A stretch of 64,000 nt of DNA from Pseudomonas sp. DG56-2 (GTDB taxonomy: Bacteria; Pseudomonadota; Gammaproteobacteria; Pseudomonadales; Pseudomonadaceae). The notes under the pieces were generated by a model. The model was given only the letters and a program-made list of their open reading frames with translations, did not search any database and was not told the origin of the DNA. How positions within the stretch are numbered: position 1 is the first letter of the stretch; every line of letters starts with the position of its first letter. Below, one piece after another: positions 10,849-30,752 of the stretch. The stretch lies in the NCBI RefSeq assembly GCF_004803755.1, contig NZ_CP032311.1:3178501-3242500 (forward strand), read 5' to 3'. The position numbers were made by a program, and so were the translations under genes.

Positions 10849-10914
10849 CTAGCCCGCCAACTCGATAATGGCGGTAATAATGCTGTGCTGAGGCAAGTGC
10901 AGGAATGTGTTCAT
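10849..10914 (-). CDS. ilvA leader peptide, 21 codons (Ile-rich)
   Basis: A short reading frame beginning MNTFLHLPQH. Residues 12-17 are Ile-Ile-Thr-Ala-Ile-Ile (codons ATT ATT ACC GCC ATT ATC), then Glu-Leu-Ala-Gly and TAG. Four Ile codons in six positions immediately before a terminator and antiterminator pair mark a ribosome-stalling control codon block for isoleucine. The stop codon is placed so that a non-stalled ribosome covers GGCGGG and lets the terminator form, while stalling at the Ile codons frees it. No good Shine-Dalgarno sequence precedes the ATG, and the predicted transcription start is at or next to the ATG. The gene is too short for routine calling. Confidence 0.8.
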   Translation of the reverse strand: MNTFLHLPQHSIITAIIELAG

Positions 10915-10921
10915 GCCAGCG

Positions 10922-10951
10922 AAACTAGCGTAGTCACCCAGGCTAAGTCAA
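10922..10951 (-). promoter_or_regulatory. Predicted sigma70 promoter of the ilvA leader
   Basis: TTGACT (10951-10946) and TAGTTT (10927-10922) are separated by 18 bases on the minus strand. Transcription would begin about 7 bases downstream, next to the leader ATG at 10914, giving a leaderless or nearly leaderless transcript. The -10 match is only moderate. Confidence 0.5.
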
Positions 10952-11067
10952 GCGTCCAAATCCCTCTCGCTCATTGGACAAGCACTGCTTCTGCTGCTTG
11001 TATCTAAGGCCTACAGAGTACCGAAAGCGCGCCGCGCAGAACCCTGGCAAGGGACGAGGAAGGAGCA

Positions 11068-12225: not shown

Positions 12226-12583
12226 GGTTGTTCACGGAATTCCGGGAACTACGCACCGGGGCCTGCTAGCGAGTGAGCACCGGAATGTGGCTCGAATGGC
12301 GATGAACATATCCGTTTGTTGGGGTGGCACTACTGGCCGGCTTCGCTTTTACGGCGACCCACTTTCGTCGGGGTGTATGGACCGGACACATGGTGGACAC
12401 GTGTACGGAGACATCGTTGACACATTATCGCCTGCCATCCGGGTTGTCCCTTCGGTAGGTTGAGTGTAGGTATTGCGTAGTCGGGTGCAGCCTAGACAAA
12501 AGGGATGCGCCGTAAGAGCGCAAAGGAGATCCGAAACCGCCTAAGCCAATGGATCAGCACTGGCTGAATGGGGCACCACCTAC

Positions 12584-13215
12584 GCACCGGAATGTGGCTC
12601 AGGTGTCGATGGGCATATCCGTTTGATGTGGTGGCACCACTGGCTGGTTTCGCCTTTACGGCGACCCGCTTTTGTCGGGGCAAAAGTGGGCAAAACCCCC
12701 TGTCCCTGCATCCGGCCCTACGCTGCGCTTCGGGTTCCCTCATTCCACCCTTGCTCCCGTGGGGACCGCGCCGAAGGGCCGTCCTGGCCCTGCGGCGCTC
12801 GCCGGCCATCCATGGCCGTCGCCCCACTACGCAAGGGTTCCATTCGGCCTACTGAAGGGACGATTTGTGGCGTCTGCACGATTTGTGTAGGTAGAAGCAC
12901 AGCAGCGGCAACGGCAACAGCGAGGTGCTGGTGTGCAGCTTTTGCTTTTGATCTGGCTCTTCGTACATCGCCAGCCCAGACACCCTGGATCGTCCCTTCA
13001 GTAGGCTGAGTGTAGGTATTGCGTAGTCGGGTGCAGGCCATGGATGGCCTGCGAGCACCGTAGGGCCAGGACGGCCCTTCGGTGCGGTCCCGACGGGAGC
13101 AATGCCGGAGCGAAGGGACCCGGAGCGCAGCGCAGGGCCGAATGCAGGGACACACGGTTTTGGTTCCTTTTGCCAAGACAAAAGGGACCCGCCGTAAGGG
13201 CGGAAGGGGCCAACA
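12584..13215 (+). repeat. Complete X-core-Y composite inverted-repeat element, copy 1
   Basis: Arm X (about 12584-12880) begins GCACCGGAATGTGGCTC and arm Y (about 12985-13215) ends near the GCCGTAAGGGCGG hairpin. Y read on the opposite strand is a diverged homologue of X, so the unit is a giant imperfect inverted repeat. The roughly 100-bp core holds a short hexamer tract (12903-12920). Hairpins in arm Y: GCAGGCCAT/ATGGCCTGC (13033-13052), AGGGCC/GGCCCT (13062-13078), an 11-bp stem at 13162-13189 with one G-T pair, and CCGCC/GGCGG at 13189-13203. Confidence 0.8.
12903..12920. repeat. Short hexamer tract in element core (about 3 units)
   Basis: CAGCGG CAACGG CAACAG; on the other strand this is CTGTTG CCGTTG CCGCTG. 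It is the same hexamer as the long tract at 49515 but with only about three units. Confidence 0.75.
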
Positions 13216-13255
13216 GCGCCGCCGCATCGAATGGATAAGCTCACAGCCTCAAATC

Positions 13256-13320
13256 CCAGCCCAGCCCAGCCCAGCCCAGCCCAGCCCAGCCCAGCCCAAA
13301 GATCATGCCCAAAGATCATG
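13256..13320. repeat. CCAGC pentamer tract and 13-bp tandem duplication
   Basis: Eight perfect CCAGC units (13256-13295) run into two copies of CCCAAAGATCATG (13295-13307 and 13308-13320). Such a tract is likely length-variable between strains. It lies at the outer edge of the repeat locus, 75 bp from the stop of the downstream histidine kinase gene. Confidence 0.85.
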
Positions 13321-13395
13321 CCCCCGGGATTTCGTGAAGAACCTTTTTTGAGCAGGCCAAGCTACTTCGCTAAGTTGAGCGCTAACAACGACCAC

Positions 13396-14694
13396 TCAAC
13401 CTCGCGGTAGACGAATCCGGAACTGCGCGCCACCCAAGGCTGACTGGGCCACGGTCAAGGTACCGCCCTGCCCTTCGATCGCCCGTCGGCTGATTGCCAG
13501 GCCAAGACCAAACCCACCGGTAGCGCGATCCCGGCTACGGTCCAGGCGATAGAACGGTTGGAATATCAGCTCGCGCTGGTCGGGGGGAATACCGATACCG
13601 TCATCCTCGACCGTCAACAGGCAGTGACCTTCGCTGTCCAGGCTCAAGCGTAGCAATAGCTGCCGGTCACAGTAACGCATGGCGTTGCGCACCAGATTCT
13701 GCACTGCCCGTGCCGTCAGGCGCGGATCAAGGATAAAGCGCGGCAAGTTGTCATCGGCGCGGACCTGCCACTCGATACCGCGACCATCGAGTTCTTCGGC
13801 AAAGCTGCCAAGTATGCTGTCGACCAGTTCCAGCAACGAAACCTCGACCCGCTCGCGCGCCTGATCAGCATTCTGCAAACGACTATAGGACAGCAGTTCA
13901 AGCACCAGCTCATCCAGCTCGCGCACATGCCCGACCAACTCCAGCAAGCGCTTGCGACAGTTGAAGGGCACTTCGTCGAACAGCAACACCAGACCAAAAT
14001 CAAGGCGGGTCAGCGGTGTGCGCAGCTCGTGGGAAACTGCATTGAGTAACTCACGCTGCTGAGTCAGCAAGCGCTCGACGTCCTGGGCCATGGTGTCGAA
14101 CACCTGAGCCAGCTCGCCAATGTTCGAACTGGCGGGTATCTGCGTACGCTCCGACAAGTGCCCCTGCCCCAGGCTGCGAGCAGTCACCTTAAGGCGTTCC
14201 AGATCACGCCAGTGCGGCCACACCCACAGCAGCAAACAGCCGAGCATGGCGGCACCTATCAGTACCGTAACGCCCCAGGACAGCAGGTTGATGTCCATGG
14301 GGTCCGGCGGGCTGCGCAATTCCACTGCCCAGGTCGCATCAAGCGGCGCCAACGCCGAATCGTAATAGCCCCAATCGCCCAGACGCACGACGTTTTCACC
14401 GCTCGCCAGGCGCGCGCGGTCGGCAGGCGACAAGCCGATCTGGTCCTGACGCCGCAGTTCAATTTGCAACGGGTCGAAATCGGCTGCCAGTTCCCGCGCC
14501 ACGGCCGGCCAGCGCTCGGCCGGTACCTGGTGAAAGCGCTCGACAATGAGCTTTTGCACACCCTTGGCCTGATCCAGGTTGTAGGCGATAAAACGCTCAT
14601 GAAAGGCGCCGACGATGGCGTCGGGAATCAGCAGCAGCGCTCCGGCGTAGGCGACGATGATCACCAAGTACAGGCGAACCAGAATCTTCAGCAT
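13396..14694 (-). CDS. Sensor histidine kinase (RstB/ParS-like)
   Basis: A 432-residue inner-membrane kinase. TM1 lies at about 7-27, a periplasmic sensor segment (about 28-150) follows, then TM2 (about 153-178), HAMP, HisKA with phospho-His in NAVSHELRTPLTRLDF (about 234), and HATPase with N, G1 and G2 boxes (NLVRNAMRY, DDGIGIPPDQ, GGFGLGLAI). It forms an operon with the response regulator gene upstream (6 bp between the genes). It is divergent from an RND pump, so pump control is a reasonable inference, as for ParRS-type systems. The signal sensed is unknown. Confidence 0.88.
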   Translation of the reverse strand: MLKILVRLYLVIIVAYAGALLLIPDAIVGAFHERFIAYNLDQAKGVQKLIVERFHQVPAERWPAVARELAADFDPLQIELRRQDQIGLSPADRARLASGENVVRLGDWGYYDSALAPLDATWAVELRSPPDPMDINLLSWGVTVLIGAAMLGCLLLWVWPHWRDLERLKVTARSLGQGHLSERTQIPASSNIGELAQVFDTMAQDVERLLTQQRELLNAVSHELRTPLTRLDFGLVLLFDEVPFNCRKRLLELVGHVRELDELVLELLSYSRLQNADQARERVEVSLLELVDSILGSFAEELDGRGIEWQVRADDNLPRFILDPRLTARAVQNLVRNAMRYCDRQLLLRLSLDSEGHCLLTVEDDGIGIPPDQRELIFQPFYRLDRSRDRATGGFGLGLAISRRAIEGQGGTLTVAQSALGGAQFRIRLPRG

Positions 14695-14700
14695 GCGGCG

Positions 14701-15408
14701 TCAGAACTCCCATTCCACGCGACTGAACAAATAACCCTTGCCCCACACCGTCTTGATCTTGCGGGCCTCGCCGGCACTGTCGTCGAACTTTCGCCGTAAC
14801 TTGGAGATCGCCACGTCCACGGAGCGATCGGTGCCATTGAATTCGATGCCACGCAACTGTTGCAGTATCCGGTCACGGCTAAGCACGACGCCGGCATTGC
14901 GCGCCAGCACCACCAGCAAGTTGTACTCGCCACTGGAGAGCTCGACCAGTTGTTCACGCCAGAACACATTGCGCTCCGCCAGGTCGATTCGCAGACCGCC
15001 AACCACAATCAGGTCGGTCTCCATACGGGGTTCATTGACGCTGCTGCGGCGCAGCAAGGTGCGCACCCGGGCCAGCAGTACCCGAGGCTCGCAAGGTTTG
15101 GTGACATAGTCGTCAGCACCCATTTCCAGACCTAGCACCTGGTCATGACTGTCATCACGAGCGGTCAGCATCAGAATCGGCAAGGACTGCGACTCTGCCC
15201 GCAACAAGCGGCACACCTGGAGTCCATCGAGGCCCGGCAGCATCAGGTCGAGAATCACCAGGTCCGGCTTGTTGCGTCGAGCCTCCGCCAGCACGTGGTC
15301 GCCACGGGCAATTACCGTGACACAGAAATCGTTGCGCTGCAGGTAGCTGGCGATCAGTTCGGACAAGGCGCAGTCGTCTTCGACCAGGAGGATGTTCGGC
15401 ATGGGCAA
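14701..15408 (-). CDS. OmpR/RstA-family response regulator
   Basis: A 235-residue DNA-binding regulator. The receiver domain (about 1-120) has the acidic pocket VEDD, phospho-acceptor Asp in LVILDLMLPGLDG (about 53) and the switch Lys in DDYVTKPCEP. The C-terminal winged helix (about 135-232) ends in the usual DVAISKLRRKF and KTVWGKGYLFS. It is paired with the kinase gene downstream and divergent from the RND efflux operon with a 151-bp gap that would hold both promoters. Confidence 0.9.
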   Translation of the reverse strand: MPMPNILLVEDDCALSELIASYLQRNDFCVTVIARGDHVLAEARRNKPDLVILDLMLPGLDGLQVCRLLRAESQSLPILMLTARDDSHDQVLGLEMGADDYVTKPCEPRVLLARVRTLLRRSSVNEPRMETDLIVVGGLRIDLAERNVFWREQLVELSSGEYNLLVVLARNAGVVLSRDRILQQLRGIEFNGTDRSVDVAISKLRRKFDDSAGEARKIKTVWGKGYLFSRVEWEF

Positions 15409-15559
15409 TTTGACAGGATGGGAAAGTCAGGCAAGGATATAGGACCTTGCGCGCCGCCAGCGCAACCCTTCACACTTTTTCACACTCGGCCTACACAGCT
15501 TAACAGTTGGACGTTGGCCTCCTGCCTTAGCATTGCCGGGTCATTTATGGAAGATCCGC

Positions 15560-16738
15560 ATGTTCAGTTCAAGCCCCGTCCGTCCGCGCACCCTGTTGCC
15601 GCTGCTGGTCGTCATGTTGTCCCTTGGCGCCTGTAACGACGGCGTACCCGAAGAACAGAAAGCGCCGCCCAGCACCGTCAGTATCGAAACGGTGACCGTT
15701 CAACCCCTGGCCATCAGCACCGAACTCAACGGTCGCATCCTGGCGCCCCGTGTCGCTGAAGTTCGCGCACGTGTTGCGGGCGTGGTACTCAAGCGCGTGT
15801 ACCGTGAAGGCAGCGACGTCAAGCAGGGCGATGTGCTGTTCCGAATTGATCCTGCACCTTTCCAGGCCGACTTCGACAGCGCGCGTGCCATCCTGGCCAA
15901 GGCCGAAGCGACGCGCTACCAAGCACGCCTGCAGGATCAACGCTATCGCGAGCTGATCACCATCAATGCCATCAGCCGCCAGGATCACGACAACGCACGC
16001 GCCGCAATGATGCAGGCCGATGCCGCCGTAGCCGAAGCGAAAGCTGCGCTGGAGCGGGCCAGGCTAAACCTTGGCTACGCGACCGTAACGGCACCGATTT
16101 CCGGCCGAATTGGCCGTGCCTTGGTGACTGAAGGCGCATTAGTGGGGCAGAACGAAAGCACCCCACTGGCGACCATTCAGCAATTGGACCCGATCCACGC
16201 CGATGTAACTCAGTCGACCCGCGAACTCAACGCCCTGCGGCGAGCCCTGCGCGCTGGCGAATTGCAGCAGGTTGGCCGGGACCAGGCCAGCGCCACCTTG
16301 ATTCAGGACGACGGCACGCCTTACCCGCTGCCCGGCAAGCTGCTGTTCTCGGACATCAGCGTCGATCCAAGCACCGGGCAGATCACCCTGCGCAGCGAGT
16401 TCCCCAATCCAGACCTCGACCTGCTGCCCGGCAGTTTTATCCGCGTGCGCCTGGAGCAAGCCATCAAGCAGCAAGGGATCAGCGTGCCACAACGGGCCAT
16501 CCTGCGTGACAGCGCGGGCAATCCACGGGTATTGCTGGTGGATGCCCAGCAGCGTATCAGCGAGCGGCCAGTGGTACTCAGTAGCGTGCAGAACGACCGC
16601 TGGATCGTCAGCCAAGGCCTGTCCCCGGGTGACAGGGTGGTGGTCGAGGGTTTGCAGCACGTCAATCCGGGCGACCAGGTACAGGTCGATAACGCGGGCA
16701 AGGACGCCCCTTCCATCGCCAAGACCATCGGCCAGTGA
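15560..16738 (+). CDS. RND efflux membrane fusion lipoprotein (MFP)
   Basis: Periplasmic adaptor of a tripartite multidrug pump. The ATG at 15560 has GGAAG 6 bases upstream and gives a lipoprotein signal with lipobox LGAC (Cys about residue 25), as in MexA/AcrA; an ATG 27 bases upstream is less likely. The biotinyl-lipoyl-like halves VAEVRARVAGVV and ATVTAPISGRIGRAL flank an alpha-helical hairpin. It is about 392 residues, normal for the family. It is followed 11 bp later by the transporter gene. No outer-membrane channel gene follows. Confidence 0.9.
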   Translation: MFSSSPVRPRTLLPLLVVMLSLGACNDGVPEEQKAPPSTVSIETVTVQPLAISTELNGRILAPRVAEVRARVAGVVLKRVYREGSDVKQGDVLFRIDPAPFQADFDSARAILAKAEATRYQARLQDQRYRELITINAISRQDHDNARAAMMQADAAVAEAKAALERARLNLGYATVTAPISGRIGRALVTEGALVGQNESTPLATIQQLDPIHADVTQSTRELNALRRALRAGELQQVGRDQASATLIQDDGTPYPLPGKLLFSDISVDPSTGQITLRSEFPNPDLDLLPGSFIRVRLEQAIKQQGISVPQRAILRDSAGNPRVLLVDAQQRISERPVVLSSVQNDRWIVSQGLSPGDRVVVEGLQHVNPGDQVQVDNAGKDAPSIAKTIGQ

Positions 16739-16749
16739 GGGCCTGATTC

Positions 16750-19700
16750 ATGCCGCAGTTTTTTATTGACCGCCCGATTTTCGCCTGGGTGGTCGCGCTG
16801 TTCATCCTGCTCGCCGGTGCTCTGGCCCTCCCGCAGTTGCCAGTGGCGCAATACCCGGACGTGGCACCACCGCAGGTCGAGATCTACGCTGTCTATCCGG
16901 GTGCGTCGGCACAGACGGTCGACGAAAGTGTGGTCAGCTTGATCGAGGAAGAGCTCAACGGTGCCGACAACCTGCTGTACTTCAGCTCTCAAAGCAGCCT
17001 CGGCAGCGCCACCATTACCGCGACGTTCGAACCGGGCACCAATCCGGACCTTGCCCAGGTGGATGTGCAAAACCGTCTCAAGGTGGTGGAGTCGCGCCTG
17101 CCACGCCCGGTCACCCAGCAAGGCCTGCAGGTAGAGAAGGTATCAACGGGTTTCCTGCTGCTGGTTACCCTCACTGCCGAGGACGGCGCCCTCGATGAAG
17201 TGACGCTGAGCGACTTTCTGGCGCGCAACGTAATGAACGAAATCCGCCGCCTCAAGGGCGTCGGCAAGGCCCAGTTGTATGGCTCCGAGCGTGCCATGCG
17301 GATCTGGCTCGACCCGCAGAAACTGATCGGTTTCAACCTGACGCCCGACGATGTCAACGAAGCCATTGCCGGTCAGAACGCCCAAGTTGCTCCTGGTAGC
17401 ATCGGTGACCTGCCTGGTACCGGCACCCAGGAAATTACCGCCAACGTGGTGATCAAGGGTCAACTGAGCACCGTGCAGGAGTTCAGCGATATTGTCCTGC
17501 GCGCCAATCCGGACGGTTCCAAAGTCACCATTGGTGATGTCGCCCGTGTCGAAATCGGCAGCCAGGAATACCAGTACGGCACCCGCCTCAATGGCAAGCC
17601 GACCAGTGCCTTCAGCGTGCAACTGTCGCCAGGTGCCAACGCCATGGAAACGGCCACCCTGGTCAGCAATAAACTCAATGAGTTGTCCCGCTTCCTGCCG
17701 CCTGGGGCCAAATTCGACATTCCTTACGACACTTCGCCGTTCGTCAAAGTGTCGATCCAGCAAGTGATCACCACCCTGCTGGAGGCCATGGCCCTGGTGT
17801 TCGCGGTGATGTTCCTGTTCCTGCAAAACATCCGCTACACCCTGATCCCGACCCTGGTGGTGCCAGTGGCACTGATGGGCACCTTTGCGGTGATGCTGGG
17901 GCTGGGTTTTTCGGTCAACGTGCTGACCCTGTTCGGCATGGTGCTGGCTATCGGTATTCTAGTGGACGACGCCATCGTGGTGGTGGAAAACGTCGAACGC
18001 ATCATGACCGAAGAAGGCCTGTCACCGCGCGACGCAACCAAAAAAGCCATGGGCCAGATCAGCGGCGCAATCGTCGGCATCACCCTGGTACTGGTGGCGG
18101 TGTTCTTGCCAATGGCCTTCATGAAAGGCTCCGTTGGGGTGATCTACCAGCAGTTCTCGGTGTCCATGGCGGTATCGATCCTGTTCTCGGCATTCCTCGC
18201 CCTGAGCCTCACACCTGCCCTGTGCGCCACCTTGCTTAAACCGATTGCCAAGGGCGAACACCACGAGAAGCGTGGTTTCTTCGGCTGGTTCAACCGCCGC
18301 TTCGACAGCCTAACCAATGGCTATCAGCGCTGGGTCATCCAGGCGATCAAGCGCAGCGGGCGCTATCTGATGGTGTACGTGGTACTGATCGCAGGCCTGG
18401 TGTACGGCTTCAGCCAACTGCCGTCCTCGTTCCTGCCCACCGAGGACCAGGGCTATACCATCACCGACATCCAGTTGCCGCCAGGCGCGAGCCGCGCCCG
18501 TACCGAACAGGTAGCGGCGCAGATCGAAGCGCACAACGCCACTGAGCCAGGCGTTGGCAACAGCACCCTGATCCTTGGTTTCAGTTTCTCCGGTAACGGT
18601 CAGAATGCTGCCCTCGCGTTCACCACCCTCAAGGACTGGTCCGAGCGTGGTGCAGACGACAGCGCCCAATCGATTGCCGACCGGGCCAACGCTGCCTTCA
18701 GTCAACTCAAGGACGCGATCGCCTATTCCGTGTTGCCGCCGCCGATCGATGGCCTGGGTACCTCCAGTGGTTTCGAGTTCCGCCTGCAGGATCGTGGTGG
18801 CCTCGGACATGCCGCGCTGATGGCTGCACGTGACCAGTTGCTGGCCAACGCCGAGAAGAGCCCCCTGCTGATCAACGTGCGCGAAAGTGCCCTGGCCGAA
18901 AGCCCGCAAGTGCAACTGGAAGTCGACCGCAAACAGGCCAACGCCCTGGGGGTGTCGTTTGCCGACATCGGCAACGTACTCAACACGGCGGTGGGCTCCA
19001 ACTACGTCAACGACTTCCCCAACCAGGGGCGTATGCAGCGCGTGGTGGTTCAGGCCGAAGGCGATCAACGCGCCCAAGTCGAAGACCTGCTGAAAATCCA
19101 CGTGCGAAACAGCAGCGGCAAGATGGTTCCGTTGTCCGCGTTTGTGCAGGCCAAATGGATCACAGGCCCCGTGCAGTTGACGCGATACAACGGCTACCCG
19201 GCGATTGCCGTGTCTGGCGAACCGGCACCGGGCTTCAGCTCGGGCCAGGCCATGGAGGAAGTCCAGCGCCTGGTCAACCAACTGCCCGCGGGCATGGGTC
19301 TTGAGTGGACCGGCCTGTCGCTGCAAGAGCGACTCTCAGGTGCCCAGGCGCCGATGTTGATGGCTCTGTCGCTGCTGGTGGTTTTCCTCTGCCTGGCGGC
19401 GCTGTACGAAAGCTGGTCAATTCCGACCTCGGTGCTGCTGGTGGTGCCGCTGGGTGTGCTGGGCGCCGTGATTGCGGTGAGCTTGCGCGGCATGCCCAAC
19501 GATGTGTTCTTCAAGGTTGGCTTGATCACCTTGATCGGCCTTTCGGCAAAGAACGCGATTCTGATCATCGAGTTCGCCAAGAGCCTGGTCGATGAAGGCC
19601 ATGACCTGGTCGACGCCACGGTCCAGGCCGCTCGTTTGCGCTTGCGTCCAATCGTCATGACTTCGCTGGCCTTCATCCTCGGTGTAGTGCCTCTGGCGAT

Positions 19701-20531: not shown

Positions 20532-20960
20532 TCAGCGCAACCGCGACCGAATCCGCTGGCAGACCTGCAGCACTTGCTGAACCTCACCCTCGCCGAGGTC
20601 GATCTTGCAGGCCATGCTGTTGAACACCTTTGCTGCTTCAGCCTTGAGCTCGCGCCCTTTATCAGTCAGCAGCAGGTTGCGCCGGCGACGGTCGTTCGGA
20701 TCCAGGTAGATGGTGATAAAACCGTTGTCAGCCAGTCGCCTGACGATAGGCGTCAGGGTACCCAGGTCAAACAAGGTCAGTTCGCTCAAGGCGCTGATCG
20801 ACACATCGTCCTGGCCCCACAACCCAGCCATCACCAGCAATTGCGGGTAGGTGATGCCACGCTGTTTCAATGGTTCGGCGTAATCACGAACCATGGCATT
20901 GGCGGTCGAGTACAGCGAGAAGCACAGCATCTTGTCAAAGTCGAAGGTCGGGTCAAGCAT
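20532..20960 (-). CDS. MarR/OhrR-like transcriptional regulator
   Basis: A 142-residue winged-helix regulator. From the ATG at 20960 (GAGGGAG upstream) it begins MLDPTFDFDKMLCFSLYSTA. That Cys occupies the position of the redox-active N-terminal Cys of OhrR proteins, and ITYPQLLVM also matches OhrR. The recognition wing is LDPNDRRRRNLLLTDKGREL. No ohr peroxidase gene is adjacent; the gene lies 108 bp downstream of rpe, with a CAATTTTATTG dyad in between that resembles OhrR boxes and suggests autoregulation. Confidence 0.85.
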   Translation of the reverse strand: MLDPTFDFDKMLCFSLYSTANAMVRDYAEPLKQRGITYPQLLVMAGLWGQDDVSISALSELTLFDLGTLTPIVRRLADNGFITIYLDPNDRRRRNLLLTDKGRELKAEAAKVFNSMACKIDLGEGEVQQVLQVCQRIRSRLR

Positions 20961-21002
20961 GCCCGTCTCCCTCGGCTCGACTGAACGACTGCAAGGTGGT
21001 TT

Positions 21003-21013
21003 CAATTTTATTG
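21003..21013. promoter_or_regulatory. Possible MarR/OhrR-type operator
   Basis: CAATTTTATTG, an inverted repeat of CAAT with a 3-base centre, located 43 bp upstream of the MarR-family start. It resembles the AT-rich TACAATT-AATTGTA boxes known for OhrR. Assignment is by resemblance and position only. Confidence 0.4.
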
Positions 21014-21068
21014 TGCAAGGACAGATAACTCATGCTGGATTCGCGAGAATCATGGGTATGTGCGCTTA

Positions 21069-21755
21069 TTATTGGTGGCGGCCGGCAACGGCATCGGCAA
21101 TTTTGCCGCGCAAGGCCGAGATCGTGCTGCGGTAGTCATGCTGGGCGAATATCGCTGTTCCGGCAACGAACATGTCCGCGCCCGCTGCAGCAACCTGACC
21201 GATGGTTTCCAGATTGACGCCCCCATCCACCTCCAGGCGAATGCTGCGGCCACTGTGGTCGATCAGCTTGCGCGCTGCGGCAATCTTGGGCAACACCTGG
21301 GGGATGAAGCGCTGACCACCAAAACCAGGATTGACCGACATCAGCAGGATCAGATCCAGCCGATCCAGCAGGTATTGTGCGGCGTCCAAGGTCGTTGCCG
21401 GGTTGAACACCAAGCCAGCCTTGCAACCCAGATCCTTGATCAACTGCACCGAGCGGTCCAGGTGCAAGGTTGCCTCGGGATGGATTGAAATGTAGTCGGC
21501 ACCGGCCTCGGCGAACGCCTGAATCATGCTGTCTACCGGCGTGACCATCAAGTGCACATCGATCGGCGCGGTAATGCCGTGGCTGCGCAAGGCCTTGCAG
21601 AACTGCGGGCCCATCGTCAGGTTGGGTACATAGTGGTTATCCATTACATCGATGTGGATGACGTCGGCACCGGCTGCCAGTACCTGCTCGGCCTCCTCGC
21701 CCAGCCGGGCGAAATCGGCTGCCAATATCGACGGTGCGATCCAGAACTCTTTCAC
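21069..21755 (-). CDS. rpe: Ribulose-phosphate 3-epimerase-like TIM barrel
   Basis: A 228-residue TIM-barrel epimerase. Rpe signatures are [51 protein letters not shown] and EVDGGVN, so the metal-binding His/Asp set is intact. The normal role is D-ribulose-5-P to D-xylulose-5-P conversion. It begins 12 bp after the stop of the alpha/beta hydrolase gene and is probably co-transcribed with the ligase and decarboxylase-carrier genes, which is unusual company for rpe; a pathway-dedicated role is possible. Confidence 0.85.
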
Positions 21756-21767
21756 GGGTGTACTCCA

Positions 21768-22694
21768 TTACTCATTGACTAATCGTTGCCGCGACCCTGA
21801 CCCACCCTGCCCCAAGGCAGCGCTGAGCTGTGCGATCAACTCCGGTGTTGGTACGTCCAGATGAAAGTGATGGCCGCCCTCGTGCCAGTGCACCTGGGTC
21901 TGCGCGGGCAAGGCGTGCTTACGCTTGTCGAACGCTGCGCCAGCAAACAATCCCTGGCGCCCGAGCAACAGGTGCAGGGGGCAACTGATCTGCTGCAAGA
22001 ACTCGCAGGCCTGGCCTTCGGTCAGTTGCATCAGCTCGGGCAGTACCAGGCGCGGGTCATGTCGCCAGCGATAGCCATGCCCAAGATTGAGCAGGTCGCG
22101 CTGGGCCAACAACCGTGCACCTTCGCTACTCAGATTGCCAGAGACACTGTTCTGCCGTTCCTTGATCGCCATCTCCAGGCTGCTGAACTGTGCCTCTTCA
22201 GGCCCACTGAAGCCATGCATACGCGTGCGCAGGGCCAATCGCAGCAAACGCTGGGACTTGCGCAGGTGCTCAACGGTGTTGCCGTCGTCCAGGGCAAACG
22301 GCGCACCCATGCCGTCGATAAACACCACGCTGGTAATGAAGCGGTTCATGGCGGCAAGAATCGACGCTACGCCGCTGCCCATGGAGTGACCCAGCACAGA
22401 AAAGCGCTTCCAGCCCAAGCACTCGACCAACGCGTTCATATCGTCGGCGTGTTCCCACAAGTAATAGCCGCTGTCGGCCCGGCGGTGATCGGAGCGTCCG
22501 TGTCCGGCCATATCCGGTGCTACCACAAAGCAATCGCGCAACCAGGGTGCAATGCGTTCAAACGAGGCCGCGTTGTCCAGCCAGCCGTGCAGGGCGAGCA
22601 CCGGATGGTTGCCCTCTTTGCCCCAGGTGCGCAAGGCAAAATGGTTGCCGTTGACGTCCAGTGACTGATCGCGACCTGACTGCCCCAGCTTCAT
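21768..22694 (-). CDS. Alpha/beta hydrolase, possible thioesterase of the carrier operon
   Basis: A 308-residue alpha/beta-fold hydrolase. HGWLDNAASF forms the oxyanion region, Ser nucleophile is in GHSMGSGVA (about 114), and the terminal catalytic His is in EGGHHFHLD. Its start overlaps the ligase stop by 4 bases (ATGA), so translation is coupled. Next to an AMP-ligase and a carrier-protein fusion it most plausibly releases or proofreads a carrier-bound acyl group. The exosortase-A-associated clusters known from other Proteobacteria contain a comparable hydrolase, ligase and decarboxylase. Function here is inferred from context. Confidence 0.8.
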   Translation of the reverse strand: MKLGQSGRDQSLDVNGNHFALRTWGKEGNHPVLALHGWLDNAASFERIAPWLRDCFVVAPDMAGHGRSDHRRADSGYYLWEHADDMNALVECLGWKRFSVLGHSMGSGVASILAAMNRFITSVVFIDGMGAPFALDDGNTVEHLRKSQRLLRLALRTRMHGFSGPEEAQFSSLEMAIKERQNSVSGNLSSEGARLLAQRDLLNLGHGYRWRHDPRLVLPELMQLTEGQACEFLQQISCPLHLLLGRQGLFAGAAFDKRKHALPAQTQVHWHEGGHHFHLDVPTPELIAQLSAALGQGGSGSRQRLVNE

Positions 22695-24268
22695 CCGGGC
22701 ACCGCCAGCGGGGCATTGCGCGCCGACTGCTGCAACTGCAGCAAATCGACTTTGCCGTTGGCAGTACGTGGCAGGCTGACTTCAATACTGATGCACAACG
22801 GCACCTTGTGTGCCTCAAGGCCTAGCCTGCAGTGTTCGAGTAGCTGCTCGGTGCTAAGGCTCACATCCTGGCCAAGGGTCACGAACGCGCAGAGCCCTTC
22901 ACCAACGGCAGCATGCTCGACGCTGACCACCGCAGCGGCCTCCACCCCGTCGATGGCATAGAGAAAGCCTTCAACCTCATTGGGACTGACCTTCATACCA
23001 CGGGACTTGATCATGTGATCCATGCGTCCGCGAAAATACAAATAGCCATCCTCGTCGAGACTGCAGTAGTCACCGGTATACAGCACACTCTCTCCGGGAT
23101 AGCGCCCGGGCTTGAGTTTCATTGCGGTAGCAGTGGGATTGCGCCAATAGCCGGCCATGACCGTAGCCCCGCGAATCACCAACTGGCCAACCTGATGGGG
23201 CTCATCGATACGCCGGTCTTCATCGTCCACCAGCCACAGTTCGGTGTTGGGAATGGCGATACCGACGCTGCCGGGCTTGGTGTCGATGTCTTCCGGTGGC
23301 AAGTAGGTACAGCGCTTACATTCGGTCAAACCGTACATCGAGTAGATCTGCGCCTGGGGAAACAGCGCTTTCATCTGGGCGATATGCGGCGCCTTGAGCG
23401 CTGCACCGGTATTGGTGACCATACGTACATCGGCAAACACCGCCTCGCGTTTGTGCGCGTACTCATGCAACAACATGAGCATGGTCGGCACGAATGGAAT
23501 CACACTGACCTGGTACTGGCGGATCTTGCGAATCAGGAAAATCGGCCAAGTGAATTCTTTTTCCAGCACCAGAGTGGCTCCGGCGCCAATGGCCATGATC
23601 ATCTGGTACAAGCCGTAGTCGAAGGACAGCGGCAACGAACACAGCACGTTGTCGCTTTCGTTGTAGCCAAGGTAGGTGTTCAACGAGTGCAGCGCTGCGA
23701 GCATGTTGCGATGGGTCAGCATCACACCCTTGGCTGCACCGGTAGACCCTGAGGTGTAGATAATCCCGGCAAGGTCAAGGTCAAGATTGCCACAGGGCAG
23801 CGGTACACCTGCACCTTGGCCGAGCAGGCTTTCAAAGGTTTGGGCGTGTGTTGAACCGGCCTCGCCATCGAGCAACACGATCGAATTCAGGTGTCCGAGC
23901 TCGGCCAGACGGTCTCCCAGGCTGCCGATTTTCTCGGTGGTGGTGATCAGCACCGAGGCCTCGGCGTCGCGAAGAATATAATCGAGGCTGTCCGCCGGGG
24001 TCTCAAGGCCGACATTCACTACCACGCCGCCCGCTTTGAGGATGCCCCAGAAAGCACAGACCGTTTCTACCCGGTTACCCAGGCACACCACCACCCGCTC
24101 CTGGCGCTGCAAGCCGTTGACCTGCAGACCGGCAGCCAGACGCGCGCTGGCGTCGTCCAGTTGCGCGTAGGTGTAGGTCTCATCGGCGTAGATGATCGCA
24201 GCTTTGTCCGGATGCAAGCCGTTGCGCGTCTCCAGTACATGTTGCAGGAGCACTTCAGGCGCTTTCAT
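22691..24268 (-). CDS. AMP-forming acyl/aminoacyl ligase of the carrier operon
   Basis: About 525 residues of the ANL superfamily. A3-type P-loop GIIYTSGSTGAAKGVMLTH, A5 MYGLTECKRCTYL, A7 LYTGDYCSLDEDGYLYFRGR, A8 and the C-terminal catalytic Lys in LPRTANGKVDLL. The ATG at 24268 (GAGGTG just upstream, first residues MKAPEVLLQ) is preferred over an upstream start because it fits the family N-terminus; it overlaps the end of the preceding gene by 14 bases. It resembles the AMP ligases of exosortase-A-associated clusters. It should activate a carboxylic or amino acid and load the carrier domain encoded upstream. The substrate cannot be read from the sequence. Confidence 0.85.
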   Translation of the reverse strand: MKAPEVLLQHVLETRNGLHPDKAAIIYADETYTYAQLDDASARLAAGLQVNGLQRQERVVVCLGNRVETVCAFWGILKAGGVVVNVGLETPADSLDYILRDAEASVLITTTEKIGSLGDRLAELGHLNSIVLLDGEAGSTHAQTFESLLGQGAGVPLPCGNLDLDLAGIIYTSGSTGAAKGVMLTHRNMLAALHSLNTYLGYNESDNVLCSLPLSFDYGLYQMIMAIGAGATLVLEKEFTWPIFLIRKIRQYQVSVIPFVPTMLMLLHEYAHKREAVFADVRMVTNTGAALKAPHIAQMKALFPQAQIYSMYGLTECKRCTYLPPEDIDTKPGSVGIAIPNTELWLVDDEDRRIDEPHQVGQLVIRGATVMAGYWRNPTATAMKLKPGRYPGESVLYTGDYCSLDEDGYLYFRGRMDHMIKSRGMKVSPNEVEGFLYAIDGVEAAAVVSVEHAAVGEGLCAFVTLGQDVSLSTEQLLEHCRLGLEAHKVPLCISIEVSLPRTANGKVDLLQLQQSARNAPLAVPG

Positions 24269-25856
24269 GTTGCACCTCGACCACCTCCGAAGACCGCGAC
24301 GCTGAGCGCGTCTGTCGATGCGCATCGATATAACCGGCCAACGTCGCGACGGTGTTGAAGTGCCCCGGGACTATGGTGTCCGGATTGACAAAGAAACCGT
24401 CGATTTCGTCCTCCAGGCTGATCAGCAGTTCCATGGAGGTAAGCGAGTCCAGGCCCAGGTCGTCACGCAAGTGGGAGTCGCTGTTGATGACGGTATGTTC
24501 CGGCAATTTCAGTACCACGCGCAAAATGTCGCCGAGTTGGCGCTGGGTGGCCAACTGCGTGTCAACGGCCGGTTCAGCGTCAGGGGCCGGACGCAACATG
24601 GCTTGCAGGGATACATCGGTGTGGCTGTCGCGAATATCCAGGGCGGTCTGCCGCGCCCGAGCAAGAAATAGCTGGTTGTGGCTGACCACCACTTCGGCCG
24701 GATGGCCATGACTGTGAAACAGCGTGGGCGACGCGGTTGGCCCGTACGCGCCCGAAGCCGTCACGACCAGCAGGTCACCCTCTTGCAAGGTTTCGAGCTG
24801 AACGTCGCGCCCCAGCAAGTCATCGGGGCTACAGAGCGGCCCGGAGATATGGTAGGTAGACAACGGCGCGCCGGTGCTTCCCGAGGCTTTGACAATGCGG
24901 AAGTTGCGCTTGAGTACCTGCCCGCTGCCTGCTGCAGCACCGTGGCAGTTGGTTCCACCATCGGTGACAGCAAAGACCTTGCCGTGGTTGTCCTTGATAT
25001 TGTCGACGGTAACCAGCAACGACCCGCATTTGCCAGCGATAAAACGGCCCGATTCAAGAATGATCCGGGTACGCGGAAATTCGTGATGGAAGGCATTGAA
25101 CAATGGTGCAATCAGCTGCTTGAGATGGGCGACGTCGAGTTCTGTTTCATTCTCGTAGTACTTGATACCCAGACCGCCCCCCACATCGACCATGCGCATG
25201 TCCAACTGGTAGCGCAAAGAGAGACTGCGGAATAGGTCGAGGATGTACGCCGAGTTGTCGTATACCGACTGAGCGTCGAGGATTTTGGTGCCGTTGTAGA
25301 CGTGAATACCTTTGATCTTGATATTCGGCATCGCCACATAGTCGCCGAAGTTGGCCACCGCAGTGTCTTCCTGGATGCCAAAGTGGGTGGGCCGCCCGCC
25401 CATCTTCCAGGGCGAACCTGCCGCTGAAAAATTTGGATTGATGCGAATAGCCACTGGAGCCTCACAACCCAGCTCCCCAGCCAGGGTCGAGAGCTTGCGC
25501 AGCTCGCTTTCAGATTCGACAACGATGGCGAACACCCCTACTTCCAGGGCCCGACGGTGTTCCTCGGGCTTTTTGTAGGGACCGAGCAGAATGATGTCCT
25601 GCGCTGCCACTCCTGCTTTGAGCGCAATTTCCAGCTCTGCCAGCGAGCACACTTCGGTGTTGCCACCGTATGAACGGATCAACTTCACCAAGGACAGGTT
25701 CGGGTTGACCTTCAATGCATAGAAGATATCCACGCACTCCGGCAATGCGTCCCGCAACTCGTTGAAGCTGCTACGTAACACCGCTTCATCGTAGAGGTAC
25801 GTCGGTGTCCCGAACGTCGCTTTGGCCTGAGTGACGAGTTCCTTGGAAAGCTTCAT
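24255..25856 (-). CDS. Type III PLP-dependent decarboxylase fused to a C-terminal carrier protein domain
   Basis: A 533-residue fusion. Residues 1 to about 410 are a fold-type III (alanine-racemase/LysA-like) decarboxylase: the PLP lysine is in FYALKVNPN, the glycine loop is GGGLGIKYYENE, and the active-site Cys is in SGPLCSPDDLLG. After a linker (about 420-440), residues 440-515 form an acyl/peptidyl carrier domain with phosphopantetheine Ser 471 in DDLGLDSLTSMELLISLEDE. BtrK-type decarboxylases of butirosin synthesis act on carrier-bound amino acids, and exosortase-associated decarboxylases sit beside a separate carrier, so this fusion probably decarboxylates a substrate tethered to its own arm. 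It is the first gene of the operon; GGGAG precedes the ATG. Confidence 0.85.
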   Translation of the reverse strand: MKLSKELVTQAKATFGTPTYLYDEAVLRSSFNELRDALPECVDIFYALKVNPNLSLVKLIRSYGGNTEVCSLAELEIALKAGVAAQDIILLGPYKKPEEHRRALEVGVFAIVVESESELRKLSTLAGELGCEAPVAIRINPNFSAAGSPWKMGGRPTHFGIQEDTAVANFGDYVAMPNIKIKGIHVYNGTKILDAQSVYDNSAYILDLFRSLSLRYQLDMRMVDVGGGLGIKYYENETELDVAHLKQLIAPLFNAFHHEFPRTRIILESGRFIAGKCGSLLVTVDNIKDNHGKVFAVTDGGTNCHGAAAGSGQVLKRNFRIVKASGSTGAPLSTYHISGPLCSPDDLLGRDVQLETLQEGDLLVVTASGAYGPTASPTLFHSHGHPAEVVVSHNQLFLARARQTALDIRDSHTDVSLQAMLRPAPDAEPAVDTQLATQRQLGDILRVVLKLPEHTVINSDSHLRDDLGLDSLTSMELLISLEDEIDGFFVNPDTIVPGHFNTVATLAGYIDAHRQTRSASRSSEVVEVQHESA

Positions 25857-26306
25857 CTGTTGCTCCCATCGTTCTTATAGTGTCCCGCGGCAGCGACGGT
25901 GCTTATGTCGGCGTGTAAGCGCCGTCGCACACGTTCGATGGCGGATTGGCTTCTTGTCTAAGCGCACATCACTGACGGGCCGTTGCGACCCTCGCCAATA
26001 CTTTGCGCGCAAAGTTTGTGGAAATTCTGCGGGTGGGCCAAAGGTGATGTCAAGGTAATTCCACTGACTTGAGAGTGCGGCATAAAGCCACCTCGCCAGA
26101 GGTTATTTCCTACAAAACAGAGATATTTCGTCGCACCCGGTCCATATCAGTAGGGTTTACACCCAGCAAATACAGGGGCTTTATCTGATCCGGTTTTCTG
26201 TCGGGTTTCTGAGTCTGTTTTGAAATACGGCAGCTTCCTACAGTCGGCGCCGATGTCTTGCCCCCTCTAGGCAGGACGAGCCTTACAGGAACTGTGGAAA
26301 CTAGCC
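25857..26306. promoter_or_regulatory. 450-bp divergent promoter region between the carrier operon and ccoN
   Basis: No credible gene. The region must hold the promoters of both divergent operons. The only clear signal is a perfect 16-bp palindrome at 26001-26016. I found no TTGAT-N4-ATCAA Anr/Fnr box upstream of ccoN. Confidence 0.6.
26001..26016. promoter_or_regulatory. Perfect 16-bp palindrome ACTTTGCGCGCAAAGT
   Basis: ACTTTGCGCGCAAAGT is completely self-complementary. It lies 145 bp upstream of the decarboxylase-carrier start and 290 bp upstream of ccoN, so it more likely serves the minus-strand operon. The binding protein is unknown. Confidence 0.55.
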
Positions 26307-27734
<1,428 letters not shown>

Positions 27735-28057: not shown

Positions 28058-30532
28058 TCAGCCCTGTACTTCCCGGCCATCCTCGAAAAACGCCTTGCGC
28101 CCATCCACCTGGCTCGAGGCCCGTGGCAAATTGGCTGCTTCGCCCGAGGGTTTTTCCACGTACCAATAGCAATGCTTTGCCGCCCGCGTAATAGCGACAT
28201 AGGCCAAACGCAGCACTTCATCCTTCTGGGCACTATCAAACGCCAGCGCATCGCCGGCACGCCCTAACCCTGCCTGGCGATACACCTGGTTCTTGTAGGG
28301 CGAACTGGTCAAATGCTGGCAATCACCAAGCATGAACACCGCATCCGCCTGCAAGCCCTTGGCACTGTGATAGGTCAACTGCCGGAACCGTCGCTGCTCA
28401 CTCGGCAACCCAGCTTCATGATTTACGAGAGACTTTATATGCTCAGATATCAATGACTTATCACTACTTTTTCGAAACAATATCATCACCGTCTCACCCC
28501 GCCGATAATGCTCCATCAATGTTTCAGCCAGCGCGCCTTCGTCACGATCCAACACCTTCACCGGCAGCGGTTGCGCAGCAACCGGGCCACACGCCTTAGC
28601 CTTTTTGCCGGTGATTGCCGGTGCTGATTTAACAATATGTTCGGCCGCATCGATGATGTGCTGATGACTGCGGTAGTTATCGGCAAGCATGACCCGGGTA
28701 TTGCTCGGCGAGGCGAACTCCTTGCTGAACTCCATGAAGAACTTGGGCGAGCTGCCGCGCCAGCCATAGATCGACTGCCAGTCGTCCCCCACACATAGCA
28801 GCGAGGAATGCTGAGCCACGCGCCCTACGTGCAGCGCCGGCCCACGACGGCGGATCTCGCGCAAACTAGCACGAAGCCAGGAGACGATCTGCGGAGAAAC
28901 ATCCTGGAACTCGTCAATCATCAGATGCGCCAGTGGCCGCAACAACGGGTCAGGCAGCAAACGCAGGTTTTCCGGGTTGTTCTCCGCGAGCAAGGCGAAC
29001 ATGCGGTTGTAGCTCATGATCGGTGGCGACTGGCTCAGTAGATGCGCCTCCAGCGCCCGCCAATAGAGACTCAGGGCTTCAAAGAACTGGGCATCATTGT
29101 CGCCTGCCGGGAAGCTCATCGCCGCCACCGCCTTGCTGACCTCAAGCCCCAGGTTCTCGATAAAACCCGCAGCCCCAACAAAGGCATCAAGTAGCGGTGC
29201 TGCCGACAGTTCACCCTTGACCTTGTAATCGAAGCCCGGACCGGCCACCGCATCACCGGCCAAGGATGAGGTCAGGCGCTTCGCTGCAGCATAATTTTCT
29301 AACCAAATCACAGGCTTATCGCAGAAAGCTTGAAACAAGGTGCGCTTTATTACCCACTCAGCCCACACCGGAAGCTTGGCGCCGGGGCGCTTGTACTGCT
29401 GGTTTTCAGCGGGGTCGAAACCAAGCACAACCCAGGCGTCCAATTCGGCGATGTGGCCATGGAAATGGAAACGGCTGCCATTGATCTCGACCGTTTCTCG
29501 GCTCGGCTCAATGCCCTTGATCGGCCAGGCCCCGGCTGCAAACCAGAGATCCTCGAGGGTATCGCAGAGTTCTTCGTCGCGACTGGCCGACAGTTGCGTC
29601 ACCGCCACGCGCTTCTGCACATCGGGATGATCCCGGTCCAGTGCCTTTAACTGCAATGCCTCGCGACGCATGCTGGCTATCAGTGCGGCAAAGCGCGGGC
29701 TGTCGTTGAGCAGGTCGCGATAACACAGGTTCAGCTGCTGGCGCTGGGCATCGTTGATGCGCAGATCGAATGGATTGCTGTCTGCATTGGCTTCACTGCC
29801 CCCAGGCATTTCGCTGCCCAGGGTCTCGAACGCGCGCACTTGGCTGAATCCTGGCAAGCTTCGGACCAGTGGCAGGATGCGCGAGTGGAAGGTGCGCACC
29901 AGCTCACGGGCCTGGACCGGACCAAGTTCGATTTGCCACAGGGCCAATACCTGACGCAGCCGAGCGATGAAGTCCTTGCGTGACTCGCGGGTGAAGGTCA
30001 CCACAGTCATGGCGTCCAACTCATAGCCCAGGTAATGGCGCAACAGTAGGATACGCAACACCAGCGAGGTCGACTTGCCCGCCCCGGCGCCTGCAATCAC
30101 GCAGGTGGACGGTGTATCGCTGAAGATCATCTTCCATTGCGCTGTACTTGGCTGGGCATGCGCAGGCAGGCGCAAGGCGACGTCCGCCTTGAAGCGCTTT
30201 TTCAATTCAGGAGTAAGAGGCAGGCGCCAGTCGTCAAACAGATGGTCGTCCTGACCCGGTACAGCATGTCCCGGTGCACGGCTATCGCGGATCACCAGAA
30301 CCTGACGTCCGGCTTCATAACCGTCGACCCGCCCTTCCTCGTAACCTTCCCGCAGGCCGTCAGCATGCCCGGTGCGTTGCCCGCTGGCATGGCCTTGAAA
30401 CCACGAGTCACGATGCTGAGCCTGCAAGCGGCTCAAACCTCGGCCAAGCATGCGCGCCACTAGGCGCCTGATCCACGGCATCTGCGCAGGCGGAGTCAAC
30501 TCCAGGGGTAGCTTAGGACGCTCTTCAGACAC
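28058..30532 (-). CDS. UvrD/Rep-family ATP-dependent DNA helicase (helicase IV-like)
   Basis: About 824 residues. An N-terminal Arg/Glu/Gly-rich segment with GHADGLREGYEEGRVDGYEAG-type repeats precedes the superfamily 1 core. Walker A is CVIAGAGAGKSTSL (about 145-158), motif Ia is VVTFTRESRKDF, motif II is MIDEFQDVSP, motif III is GDDWQSIYGWRGS, and the C-terminal motifs include TYHSAKGLQADAVF and AYVAITRAAKHCYW. It is a 3'-5' unwinding enzyme in repair or replication restart by family. A GTG at 30532 with GGAG 5 bases upstream is preferred to the ATG ten codons earlier. Confidence 0.87.
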   Translation of the reverse strand: MSEERPKLPLELTPPAQMPWIRRLVARMLGRGLSRLQAQHRDSWFQGHASGQRTGHADGLREGYEEGRVDGYEAGRQVLVIRDSRAPGHAVPGQDDHLFDDWRLPLTPELKKRFKADVALRLPAHAQPSTAQWKMIFSDTPSTCVIAGAGAGKSTSLVLRILLLRHYLGYELDAMTVVTFTRESRKDFIARLRQVLALWQIELGPVQARELVRTFHSRILPLVRSLPGFSQVRAFETLGSEMPGGSEANADSNPFDLRINDAQRQQLNLCYRDLLNDSPRFAALIASMRREALQLKALDRDHPDVQKRVAVTQLSASRDEELCDTLEDLWFAAGAWPIKGIEPSRETVEINGSRFHFHGHIAELDAWVVLGFDPAENQQYKRPGAKLPVWAEWVIKRTLFQAFCDKPVIWLENYAAAKRLTSSLAGDAVAGPGFDYKVKGELSAAPLLDAFVGAAGFIENLGLEVSKAVAAMSFPAGDNDAQFFEALSLYWRALEAHLLSQSPPIMSYNRMFALLAENNPENLRLLPDPLLRPLAHLMIDEFQDVSPQIVSWLRASLREIRRRGPALHVGRVAQHSSLLCVGDDWQSIYGWRGSSPKFFMEFSKEFASPSNTRVMLADNYRSHQHIIDAAEHIVKSAPAITGKKAKACGPVAAQPLPVKVLDRDEGALAETLMEHYRRGETVMILFRKSSDKSLISEHIKSLVNHEAGLPSEQRRFRQLTYHSAKGLQADAVFMLGDCQHLTSSPYKNQVYRQAGLGRAGDALAFDSAQKDEVLRLAYVAITRAAKHCYWYVEKPSGEAANLPRASSQVDGRKAFFEDGREVQG

Positions 30533-30752
30533 ACAGACTCCAACAAAAAATAATCTGCGCACATGTTCGCTCCAACCGCCACAAATCGCCAGCTGAATGC
30601 TTGCAGATCAGTGAATTAGACGATGAAACGCATAAATCACCCTAGCTTAATCATCGAATTACCAGATTATTTAAAGCCAAAATTTACGCTTATTTTCGAT
30701 AATAGATTCAGTGATGATCACCCCATCAACCGACTCACCTGGAGAGCCAATC

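What the first reader, a model, noticed from the sequence alone, without database searches (positions are those of the whole stretch)
21069..25856. Uncharacterised operon built on a decarboxylase-carrier protein fusion
A fold-type III PLP decarboxylase is fused to a phosphopantetheine carrier domain (Ser 471) and followed, with overlaps, by an AMP-ligase and an alpha/beta hydrolase. Similar ligase, decarboxylase and hydrolase genes with a separate carrier are known in exosortase-A-associated clusters, and BtrK decarboxylates a carrier-bound glutamate in butirosin synthesis. Here there is no exosortase in the window and the carrier is fused to the enzyme, suggesting an amino acid is loaded, decarboxylated in cis and released as a modified amine. 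No large NRPS or PKS is nearby, so the product may be a small molecule or a tag for another polymer.
Basis: partly seen in the sequence, partly recalled or inferred. Interest (0 to 1): 0.88.

Follow-up and report, generated by a model that had tools for sequence, protein, structure and literature searches.

The report
Self-contained carrier-bound aspartate decarboxylation operon
A rare soil-bacterium operon fuses a decarboxylase to its own carrier domain, probably turning carrier-bound aspartate into a beta-alanine unit with no assembly-line gene beside it, and it travels with spare copies of housekeeping enzymes and its own regulator, so its product and purpose are a new, testable question.

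Summary
A BtrK-type PLP decarboxylase is fused in one 533-aa frame to a carrier domain (Ser471), followed with overlaps by an AMP-ligase and an alpha/beta hydrolase.
The ligase's nearest solved stand-alone homologue is VinN, whose Asp230 and Arg331 are conserved. Best reading: aspartate, or a close analogue, is loaded by its beta-carboxyl, decarboxylated in cis to beta-alanyl-carrier, and released or transferred by a thioesterase-like hydrolase. No exosortase was found in the genome.
The chemistry is known (vicenistatin, bolagladin). For the fused, assembly-line-free form with housekeeping paralogues and shared operator I found no paper. It is rare: 9 of 398 Pseudomonas genomes. Substrate, acceptor and purpose are inferred.

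The parts
24255..25856 (-). Decarboxylase-carrier fusion, 533 aa: fold-type III PLP decarboxylase (about residues 1-409), linker, carrier domain (about 431-513)
   Evidence: PLP Lys49 and Cys342 invariant in 46 of 46 rows
24444..24446 (-). Codon of Ser471, predicted phosphopantetheine attachment site
   Evidence: DLGLDSL motif; Ser in 28 of 28 rows that have the domain
22691..24268 (-). Stand-alone AMP-ligase, 525 aa, VinN-like, predicted to load aspartate or a close analogue via the beta-carboxyl
   Evidence: start. D236/T306/R338 of the longer 544-aa frame correspond to VinN D230/S299/R331
21768..22694 (-). Alpha/beta hydrolase, 308 aa, thioesterase-like
   Evidence: best PA1622, then curacin thioesterase 3QIT over nearly the full length
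21069..21755 (-). rpe2, paralogue of ribulose-phosphate 3-epimerase
   Evidence: TIGR01163 306.7 bits, cut-off 212.6; second rpe elsewhere in genome, 66% identical
20989..21033 (-). Scar: first codons of a deleted hemE2 (MSYLSLHNK...)
   Evidence: full-length hemE2 at this place in 13 of 20 related loci
20532..20960 (-). OhrR-like MarR-family regulator, 142 aa, with LCFSLYS cysteine motif
   Evidence: present in 20 of 20 related loci
26000..26015 (.). Perfect palindrome ACTTTGCGCGCAAAGT, candidate operator
26024..26053 (-). Candidate sigma-70 promoter: TTGACA 26048-26053, CAGAAT 26024-26029, 18 bp apart
26307..27734 (+). Orphan ccoN (cbb3 oxidase subunit I), divergent neighbour; probably locus context, not pathway
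26183..26189 (+). ATCTGAT motif upstream of ccoN, same heptamer as the MpaR motif of P. aeruginosa ccoN4
   Evidence: motif described in PMC10790758 (passages)

Best explanation
This is a compact, repressor-controlled operon for carrier-bound decarboxylation of aspartate. Steps: (1) the ligase adenylates the beta-carboxyl of L-aspartate, or a close analogue such as 3-methylaspartate, and loads it on the phosphopantetheine of Ser471; (2) the BtrK-type domain on the same chain removes the alpha-carboxylate, leaving a beta-alanyl (or 2-methyl-beta-alanyl) thioester; (3) the thioesterase-like hydrolase releases it or passes it to an unknown acceptor. An OhrR-like thiol-sensing repressor binds the palindrome just downstream of the -10 box and lifts when it meets an oxidant, an electrophile or the product. 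Rpe2 and (in relatives) HemE2 are spare copies of housekeeping enzymes, most simply kept to maintain pentose-phosphate and haem flux under the condition in which the operon is on. Shown here: gene content, architecture, motif conservation, linkage, the operator candidate and purifying selection. Inferred: substrate, every reaction, the repressor-palindrome pairing, the role of Rpe2/HemE2.
Against: No biochemical datum. VinN Ser299 is Thr here; 9 of 121 rows have Cys for the Arg. Glutamate (as for BtrK) is not excluded. No N-acylating partner or assembly line was found in the operon, so the fate of a beta-alanyl group is unexplained. The operator may serve another regulator. The pathway is not always kept: the fusion gene is truncated in L020 and out of frame in L017. 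hemE2 is lost or altered in many lineages, and P. alkylphenolica lost rpe2 as well, so these two seem dispensable for the pathway.
Confidence: 0.5

Rival explanations
1. Same cis logic but another substrate: gamma-loaded glutamate decarboxylated to a GABA-carrier as in butirosin, or a modified diacid, then transferred by the hydrolase.
For: The decarboxylase is closest to BtrK, whose substrate is glutamyl-carrier (PMC7857480 passages).
Against: The ligase is an adenylate-forming enzyme with a VinN-like pocket (Asp, Thr, Arg); in VinN these positions fit a beta-amino diacid (PMC7756342).
Confidence: 0.2
2. Alternative beta-alanine supply: the hydrolase simply releases beta-alanine, so the operon bypasses the aspartate decarboxylase PanD when that enzyme fails, alongside spare Rpe and HemE.
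For: Predicted product is a beta-alanyl thioester and a thioesterase-like enzyme follows; the other enzymes of the operon are also spare copies of housekeeping functions.
Against: PanD of this genome was not looked for; the use of a costly ATP-driven bypass is unclear; in the bolagladin pathway feeding beta-alanine did not rescue the decarboxylase mutant (PMC7756342).
Confidence: 0.12
3. Member of the exosortase-A-associated ligase/decarboxylase/hydrolase set, decorating an exopolymer.
For: TIGR03099 is the top NCBIfam model for the decarboxylase (313.7 bits) and TIGR03098 for the ligase (414 bits).
Against: Both scores lie well below the curated cut-offs (478.45 and 592.35); no exosortase match in the genome; none of the 18 models listed for the hydrolase is an exosortase-associated one.
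Confidence: 0.06
4. An ordinary diaminopimelate or ornithine decarboxylase whose carrier domain is decorative.
For: Shared fold; some database entries name it diaminopimelate decarboxylase; the LysA model falls only just short of its cut-off (288.5 of 297.9).
Against: A separate LysA-like protein with EPGR is in the genome; Ser471 kept in 28 of 28 rows with the domain; a ligase is linked even to homologues without the domain.
Confidence: 0.05

Closest known systems
Vicenistatin VinN-VinL-VinO module (and fluvirucin FlvN)
   Same: Stand-alone beta-amino-acid adenylation enzyme loads a carrier; a PLP enzyme decarboxylates the carrier-bound diacid (PMC11284099).
   Different: There the carrier is a separate protein and feeds a PKS through an aminoacylating enzyme and a transferase; here the carrier is fused to the decarboxylase and no such partners were found in the operon.
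Bolagladin BolO-BolC-BolN
   Same: VinN-like ligase with the same three-residue logic, BtrK-like decarboxylase, proposed aspartate to beta-alanyl-carrier (PMC7756342 passages).
   Different: Separate carrier, KAS III N-acylation, dehydrogenase and NRPS; none of these in this operon.
Butirosin BtrK
   Same: Closest solved structure of the decarboxylase, by sequence and fold.
   Different: Acts on glutamyl-BtrI, a separate 87-aa carrier (PMC7857480 passages).
Exosortase-A-associated TIGR03098/TIGR03099 genes
   Same: Same enzyme classes.
   Different: Scores below cut-offs, no exosortase match in the genome, fused carrier, hydrolase of another type.
PA1622 (7AL5/7AL6) and the curacin thioesterase (3QIT)
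   Same: Fold and sequence similarity of the hydrolase over nearly the full length.
   Different: PA1622 is titled a hypothetical protein; the curacin enzyme belongs to a polyketide pathway (entry titles).

Membership tests
Beta-aminoacyl-carrier forming module (VinN/VinL/VinO, BolO/BolC/BolN) | Stand-alone adenylation enzyme with the D230 / S299 / R331 pocket | tested here: inconclusive
   D and R identical, Ser299 replaced by Thr; D 121/121, T 111/121, R 112/121 rows. Substrate itself not tested.
Beta-aminoacyl-carrier forming module (VinN/VinL/VinO, BolO/BolC/BolN) | BtrK/VinO-type fold-III PLP decarboxylase | tested here: met
   BtrK top hit, 249 bits and top fold; ESGR signature
Beta-aminoacyl-carrier forming module (VinN/VinL/VinO, BolO/BolC/BolN) | Carrier protein with phosphopantetheine Ser, stand-alone | tested here: not met
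   Carrier with Ser471 is present but fused, not stand-alone
Beta-aminoacyl-carrier forming module (VinN/VinL/VinO, BolO/BolC/BolN) | Adjacent N-acylating or aminoacylating partner and PKS/NRPS | tested here: not met
   None among the operon genes; no complete ORF over 1,100 aa in the window. Not every window ORF was annotated.
Exosortase-A-associated set | Decarboxylase TIGR03099 and ligase TIGR03098 over cut-off | tested here: not met
   313.7 of 478.45 and 414 of 592.35 bits
Exosortase-A-associated set | Exosortase in the genome | tested here: not met
   PF09721: no match at E 1e-3 in the own genome
Diaminopimelate decarboxylase LysA | TIGR01048 over cut-off | tested here: not met
   288.5 of 297.9 bits, a narrow miss
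Diaminopimelate decarboxylase LysA | Acts on free diaminopimelate | not testable with these tools
   needs enzyme assay
Butirosin BtrK | Decarboxylates glutamyl-carrier | not testable with these tools
   sequence nearest to BtrK, substrate unknown
OhrR | NCBIfam OhrR model over cut-off | tested here: not met
   NF052638 119.3 of 200 bits, best of the 6 models listed
OhrR | N-terminal reactive cysteine (LCFALYS-type motif, recalled) | tested here: met
   LCFSLYS in window, LCFTLYS in Acinetobacter; reactivity not testable
Ribulose-phosphate 3-epimerase | TIGR01163 over cut-off | tested here: met
   306.7 bits, cut-off 212.6
Uroporphyrinogen decarboxylase (hemE2 of relatives) | TIGR01464 over cut-off | tested here: met
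   421.4 in L016 and 372.5 in L010, cut-off 302.95 (2 of 13 copies scanned); 3 of 13 copies lack the Arg37 equivalent and 5 of 13 the His339 equivalent

The most novel reading that the evidence does not exclude
The operon makes a small reactive or metal-binding metabolite from one amino acid on one built-in carrier, with no assembly line, and carries spare Rpe and HemE (with the divergent orphan CcoN in Pseudomonas) because those housekeeping enzymes are its targets; the OhrR-like repressor senses the compound. This would be a minimal biosynthesis-plus-self-protection cassette pointing to two enzymes, Rpe and HemE, for which I recall no natural inhibitor. A natural deletion in Acinetobacter (L020) that removes most of the biosynthetic genes but keeps rpe2, hemE2 and the regulator fits this; loss of rpe2, hemE2 and ccoN in P. 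alkylphenolica with the biosynthetic genes kept, and altered catalytic positions in several hemE2 copies, speak against it.
Probability: 0.15. Interest if true: 0.85.

Novelty: new variant of a known kind. Interest (0 to 1): 0.58.

Why it matters
In the two papers I read passages of, carrier-bound decarboxylation of aspartate or methylaspartate feeds PKS or NRPS lines (PMC11284099, PMC7756342). Here the ligase, the fused decarboxylase-carrier and a thioesterase-like hydrolase look like a closed unit, and decarboxylase-ligase linkage appears to reach homologues without the carrier domain, some of them from marine Flavobacteria. A one-polypeptide decarboxylase that holds its own substrate is a handy tool for making beta-aminoacyl units, and the bundled housekeeping paralogues give a concrete lead to the function or target of an unknown metabolite. 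All of it can be tested in laboratory strains.

Tried and rejected
Orphan ccoN as part of the pathway: kept as context only. It lies beside the operon in 15 of 17 Pseudomonas loci (one cut by the locus end) and in 0 of 3 Acinetobacter loci, but a copy 87-91% identical is common in Pseudomonas genomes without the operon, in other surroundings: 0 of the 16 stretches fetched around it hold any operon gene.

RND pump and mobA: the RND gene is seen in 14 of 17 Pseudomonas loci (the other three end before it) and in 0 of 3 Acinetobacter loci; treated as the insertion neighbourhood.

Flavobacterial gene neighbourhoods: wanted, not reached. Bacteroidia sample 0 of 395 at E 1e-100, one family of 6 genomes 0 of 6 at E 1e-80; neither search had a known positive, so they show little. 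Contig-length matching is the substitute; there I entered all 120 listed decarboxylase rows and all 120 ligase rows but only the first 85 of 120 hydrolase rows (12 matches with the decarboxylase list, 7 shared by all three).

Plasmid homologues (32 records, all under 60% identity; 6 of the 20 listed opened): in the 5 with listed genes no rpe or hemE is listed beside the decarboxylase (that gene table is incomplete); their clusters hold other genes (KAS III-like, P450, ectoine genes). The sixth had no listed genes.

Literature: no paper on this operon in the listings (open-licence PubMed Central only; listings looked at by title and abstract start, three of those papers by passages).

Folds: the dimer, which for this enzyme class forms the active site (recalled), was not modelled.

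Full report
What is there. The window lies in a Pseudomonas genome; its closest named relative in the scan is P. arcuscaelestis, with a 98% identical fusion protein. On the minus strand runs an operon: decarboxylase-carrier fusion (24255-25856), AMP-ligase (22691-24268), alpha/beta hydrolase (21768-22694), rpe2 (21069-21755), a scar of hemE2 (20989-21033) and an OhrR-like regulator (20532-20960).

The fusion. PF02784, PF00278 and PF00550 lie in one open frame. In 46 aligned sequences the PLP lysine (Lys49) and Cys342 are invariant, and Ser471 is Ser in all 28 rows that have the domain (45 of the 120 listed homologues were put into this alignment). Of those 120 (734 hits in all), 35 carry PF00550. 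The AlphaFold model gives a decarboxylase barrel plus a folded helical carrier domain joined by a less certain stretch around residues 421-430. BtrK is the nearest solved relative by sequence (249 bits; the next, a diaminopimelate decarboxylase, 178) and by fold. The genome has its own LysA-like protein at 32% identity with EPGR; the fusion has ESGR, as BtrK has.

The ligase. Its core has VinN as top solved hit (the entry is titled only as an NRPS; that 3WVN/3WV4 is VinN is my recollection, and its chain numbering with an offset of 16 fits the published Asp230, Ser299 and Arg331). Aligned with 120 homologues, one of them the window's own protein, VinN Asp230 is D in 121 of 121 rows, Arg331 is R in 112 and C in 9, Ser299 is T in 111. 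In VinN these are proposed to recognise the amino and carboxyl groups of 3-methylaspartate, and they are conserved in BolO, which is proposed to load aspartate by its beta-carboxyl (PMC7756342, passages). The PLP step on the carrier is described for VinO, and decarboxylation must precede the next step (PMC11284099, passages and section 5). The same chemistry here is inference from these residues.

Conservation of the unit. Of 21 loci from one scan of species genomes, 20 hold the operon and one, L021, is only a distant decarboxylase. In these 20: fusion 20 (truncated in L020, with a change of frame in L017, so 18 whole), ligase 19, hydrolase 20 (one partial), rpe2 18, hemE2 13 (plus one 32-codon remnant), regulator 20; ccoN beside it in 15 of 17 Pseudomonas and 0 of 3 Acinetobacter. 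The Acinetobacter operon (L016) is 50-71% identical gene by gene, in other surroundings, which suggests horizontal transfer. P. alkylphenolica (L011, L018) lacks rpe2, hemE2 and ccoN and keeps the rest; Acinetobacter L020 lost most of the biosynthetic genes and keeps rpe2, hemE2 and the regulator. Sampled frequency: 9 of 398 Pseudomonas at E 1e-120, 1 of 274 genomes of the class, namely the own one, at E 1e-90, 3 of 175 of the genus of the Acinetobacter locus, the seed genome included, at E 1e-90. Homologues without the carrier domain, 51-62% identical, include ones named from Aquimarina, Tenacibaculum and Kordia. For rows P0032-P0096, 61 of which lack PF00550, the contig length equals that of a listed ligase homologue in 30 cases, all among the 61; over all 120 rows there are 39 exact matches, against 0 or 1 for lengths shifted by 1 to 7 bases. 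Equal length is indirect evidence of one contig.

Selection. Median pairwise dN/dS: fusion 0.107, ligase 0.107, hydrolase 0.141, rpe2 0.083, hemE2 of relatives 0.195, regulator 0.066 (7 to 10 Pseudomonas loci and 21 to 45 pairs per gene, a chosen subset of the loci). hemE2 is the loosest: 3 of 13 copies lack the Arg37 equivalent, 5 the His339 equivalent and 2 the Tyr164 equivalent (residue numbers recalled from human UROD).

Regulation. In the 16 aligned upstream regions with ccoN (the window and 15 loci), in P. alkylphenolica and in Acinetobacter, whose flanks look unrelated, a 16-bp palindrome ACTTTGCGCGCAAAGT, with one change in some, stands before the fusion. In Pseudomonas it follows a TTGACA/CAGAAT-like promoter directly. 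The pattern ACTTTGYGCRCAAAGT occurs exactly once in each of L001-L020 and in 36 of 112 loci in all. The same 36 loci, and no others, hold the start of the fusion gene; they include repeat fetches of the same genomes. In the window the perfect copy is the only match with up to three mismatches, where 0.55 matches are expected by chance. Because the regulator is the only transcription factor seen to accompany the operon into Acinetobacter, I take the palindrome as its operator (inference). The regulator has the LCFSLYS cysteine motif of OhrR proteins but scores below the OhrR equivalog cut-off.

The spare enzymes. The genome has another rpe (66% identical) and one hemE (59% identical to Acinetobacter hemE2), so rpe2, and hemE2 where present, are extra copies. 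Rpe is a mononuclear iron enzyme damaged by hydrogen peroxide (PMC8115020, one passage), which fits an OhrR-type switch. Two readings stay open: maintenance of metabolism under the inducing stress, or protection from the product. The orphan ccoN next door has the ATCTGAT motif of the cyanide-inducible P. aeruginosa ccoN4 (PMC10790758, passages), but similar copies also stand apart from the operon in many genomes.

Verdict. Real, rare, conserved and probably regulated as a unit; known chemistry in a new arrangement, with unexplained companions. The exosortase link is not supported: scores are under the cut-offs and no exosortase was found in the genome.

Noticed in passing
window 26307-27734 (+): Orphan ccoN, one of three cbb3 subunit I genes over cut-off in the genome, with an ATCTGAT motif upstream as in the cyanide-inducible ccoN4 of P. 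aeruginosa; in several other species a neighbour starts MYxYDEYDRALVFERVAQFRDQVERF (nirA-like, by recall).
   Followed up: partly
proteins P0139, P0141, P0144, P0150, P0173, P0176: Homologues of the hydrolase at 55-60% identity have HGMG instead of HSMG: the catalytic serine is gone although the protein is conserved.
   Followed up: no
L020 10001-13142: Acinetobacter ANC 4173 carries a deletion through the fusion, ligase and hydrolase genes but keeps rpe2, hemE2, the regulator and the palindrome.
   Followed up: partly
L011 and L018: P. alkylphenolica keeps fusion, ligase, hydrolase and regulator but lacks rpe2, hemE2 and ccoN; L018 still shows the ccoN-side ATCAGAT motif.
   Followed up: partly
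L017 10001-11607: The fusion gene of P. aegrilactucae changes reading frame near residue 155; real or an assembly error, not checked.
   Followed up: no
window 49514-49593: GCTGTT hexamer repeat, 13.3 copies, 97% matches; also CCCAG x 8.8 at 13255-13298.
   Followed up: no
L040 (Streptomyces plasmid) 4749-18109: A related decarboxylase next to an adenylate-forming enzyme, a carrier protein and ectoine genes (ectA, ectB, ectoine synthase, hydroxylase nearby): possibly a carrier-bound route in ectoine chemistry.
   Followed up: no
window 28058-30562 (-): 834-aa UvrD-like helicase; the family matches lie mostly in its C-terminal half.
   Followed up: no
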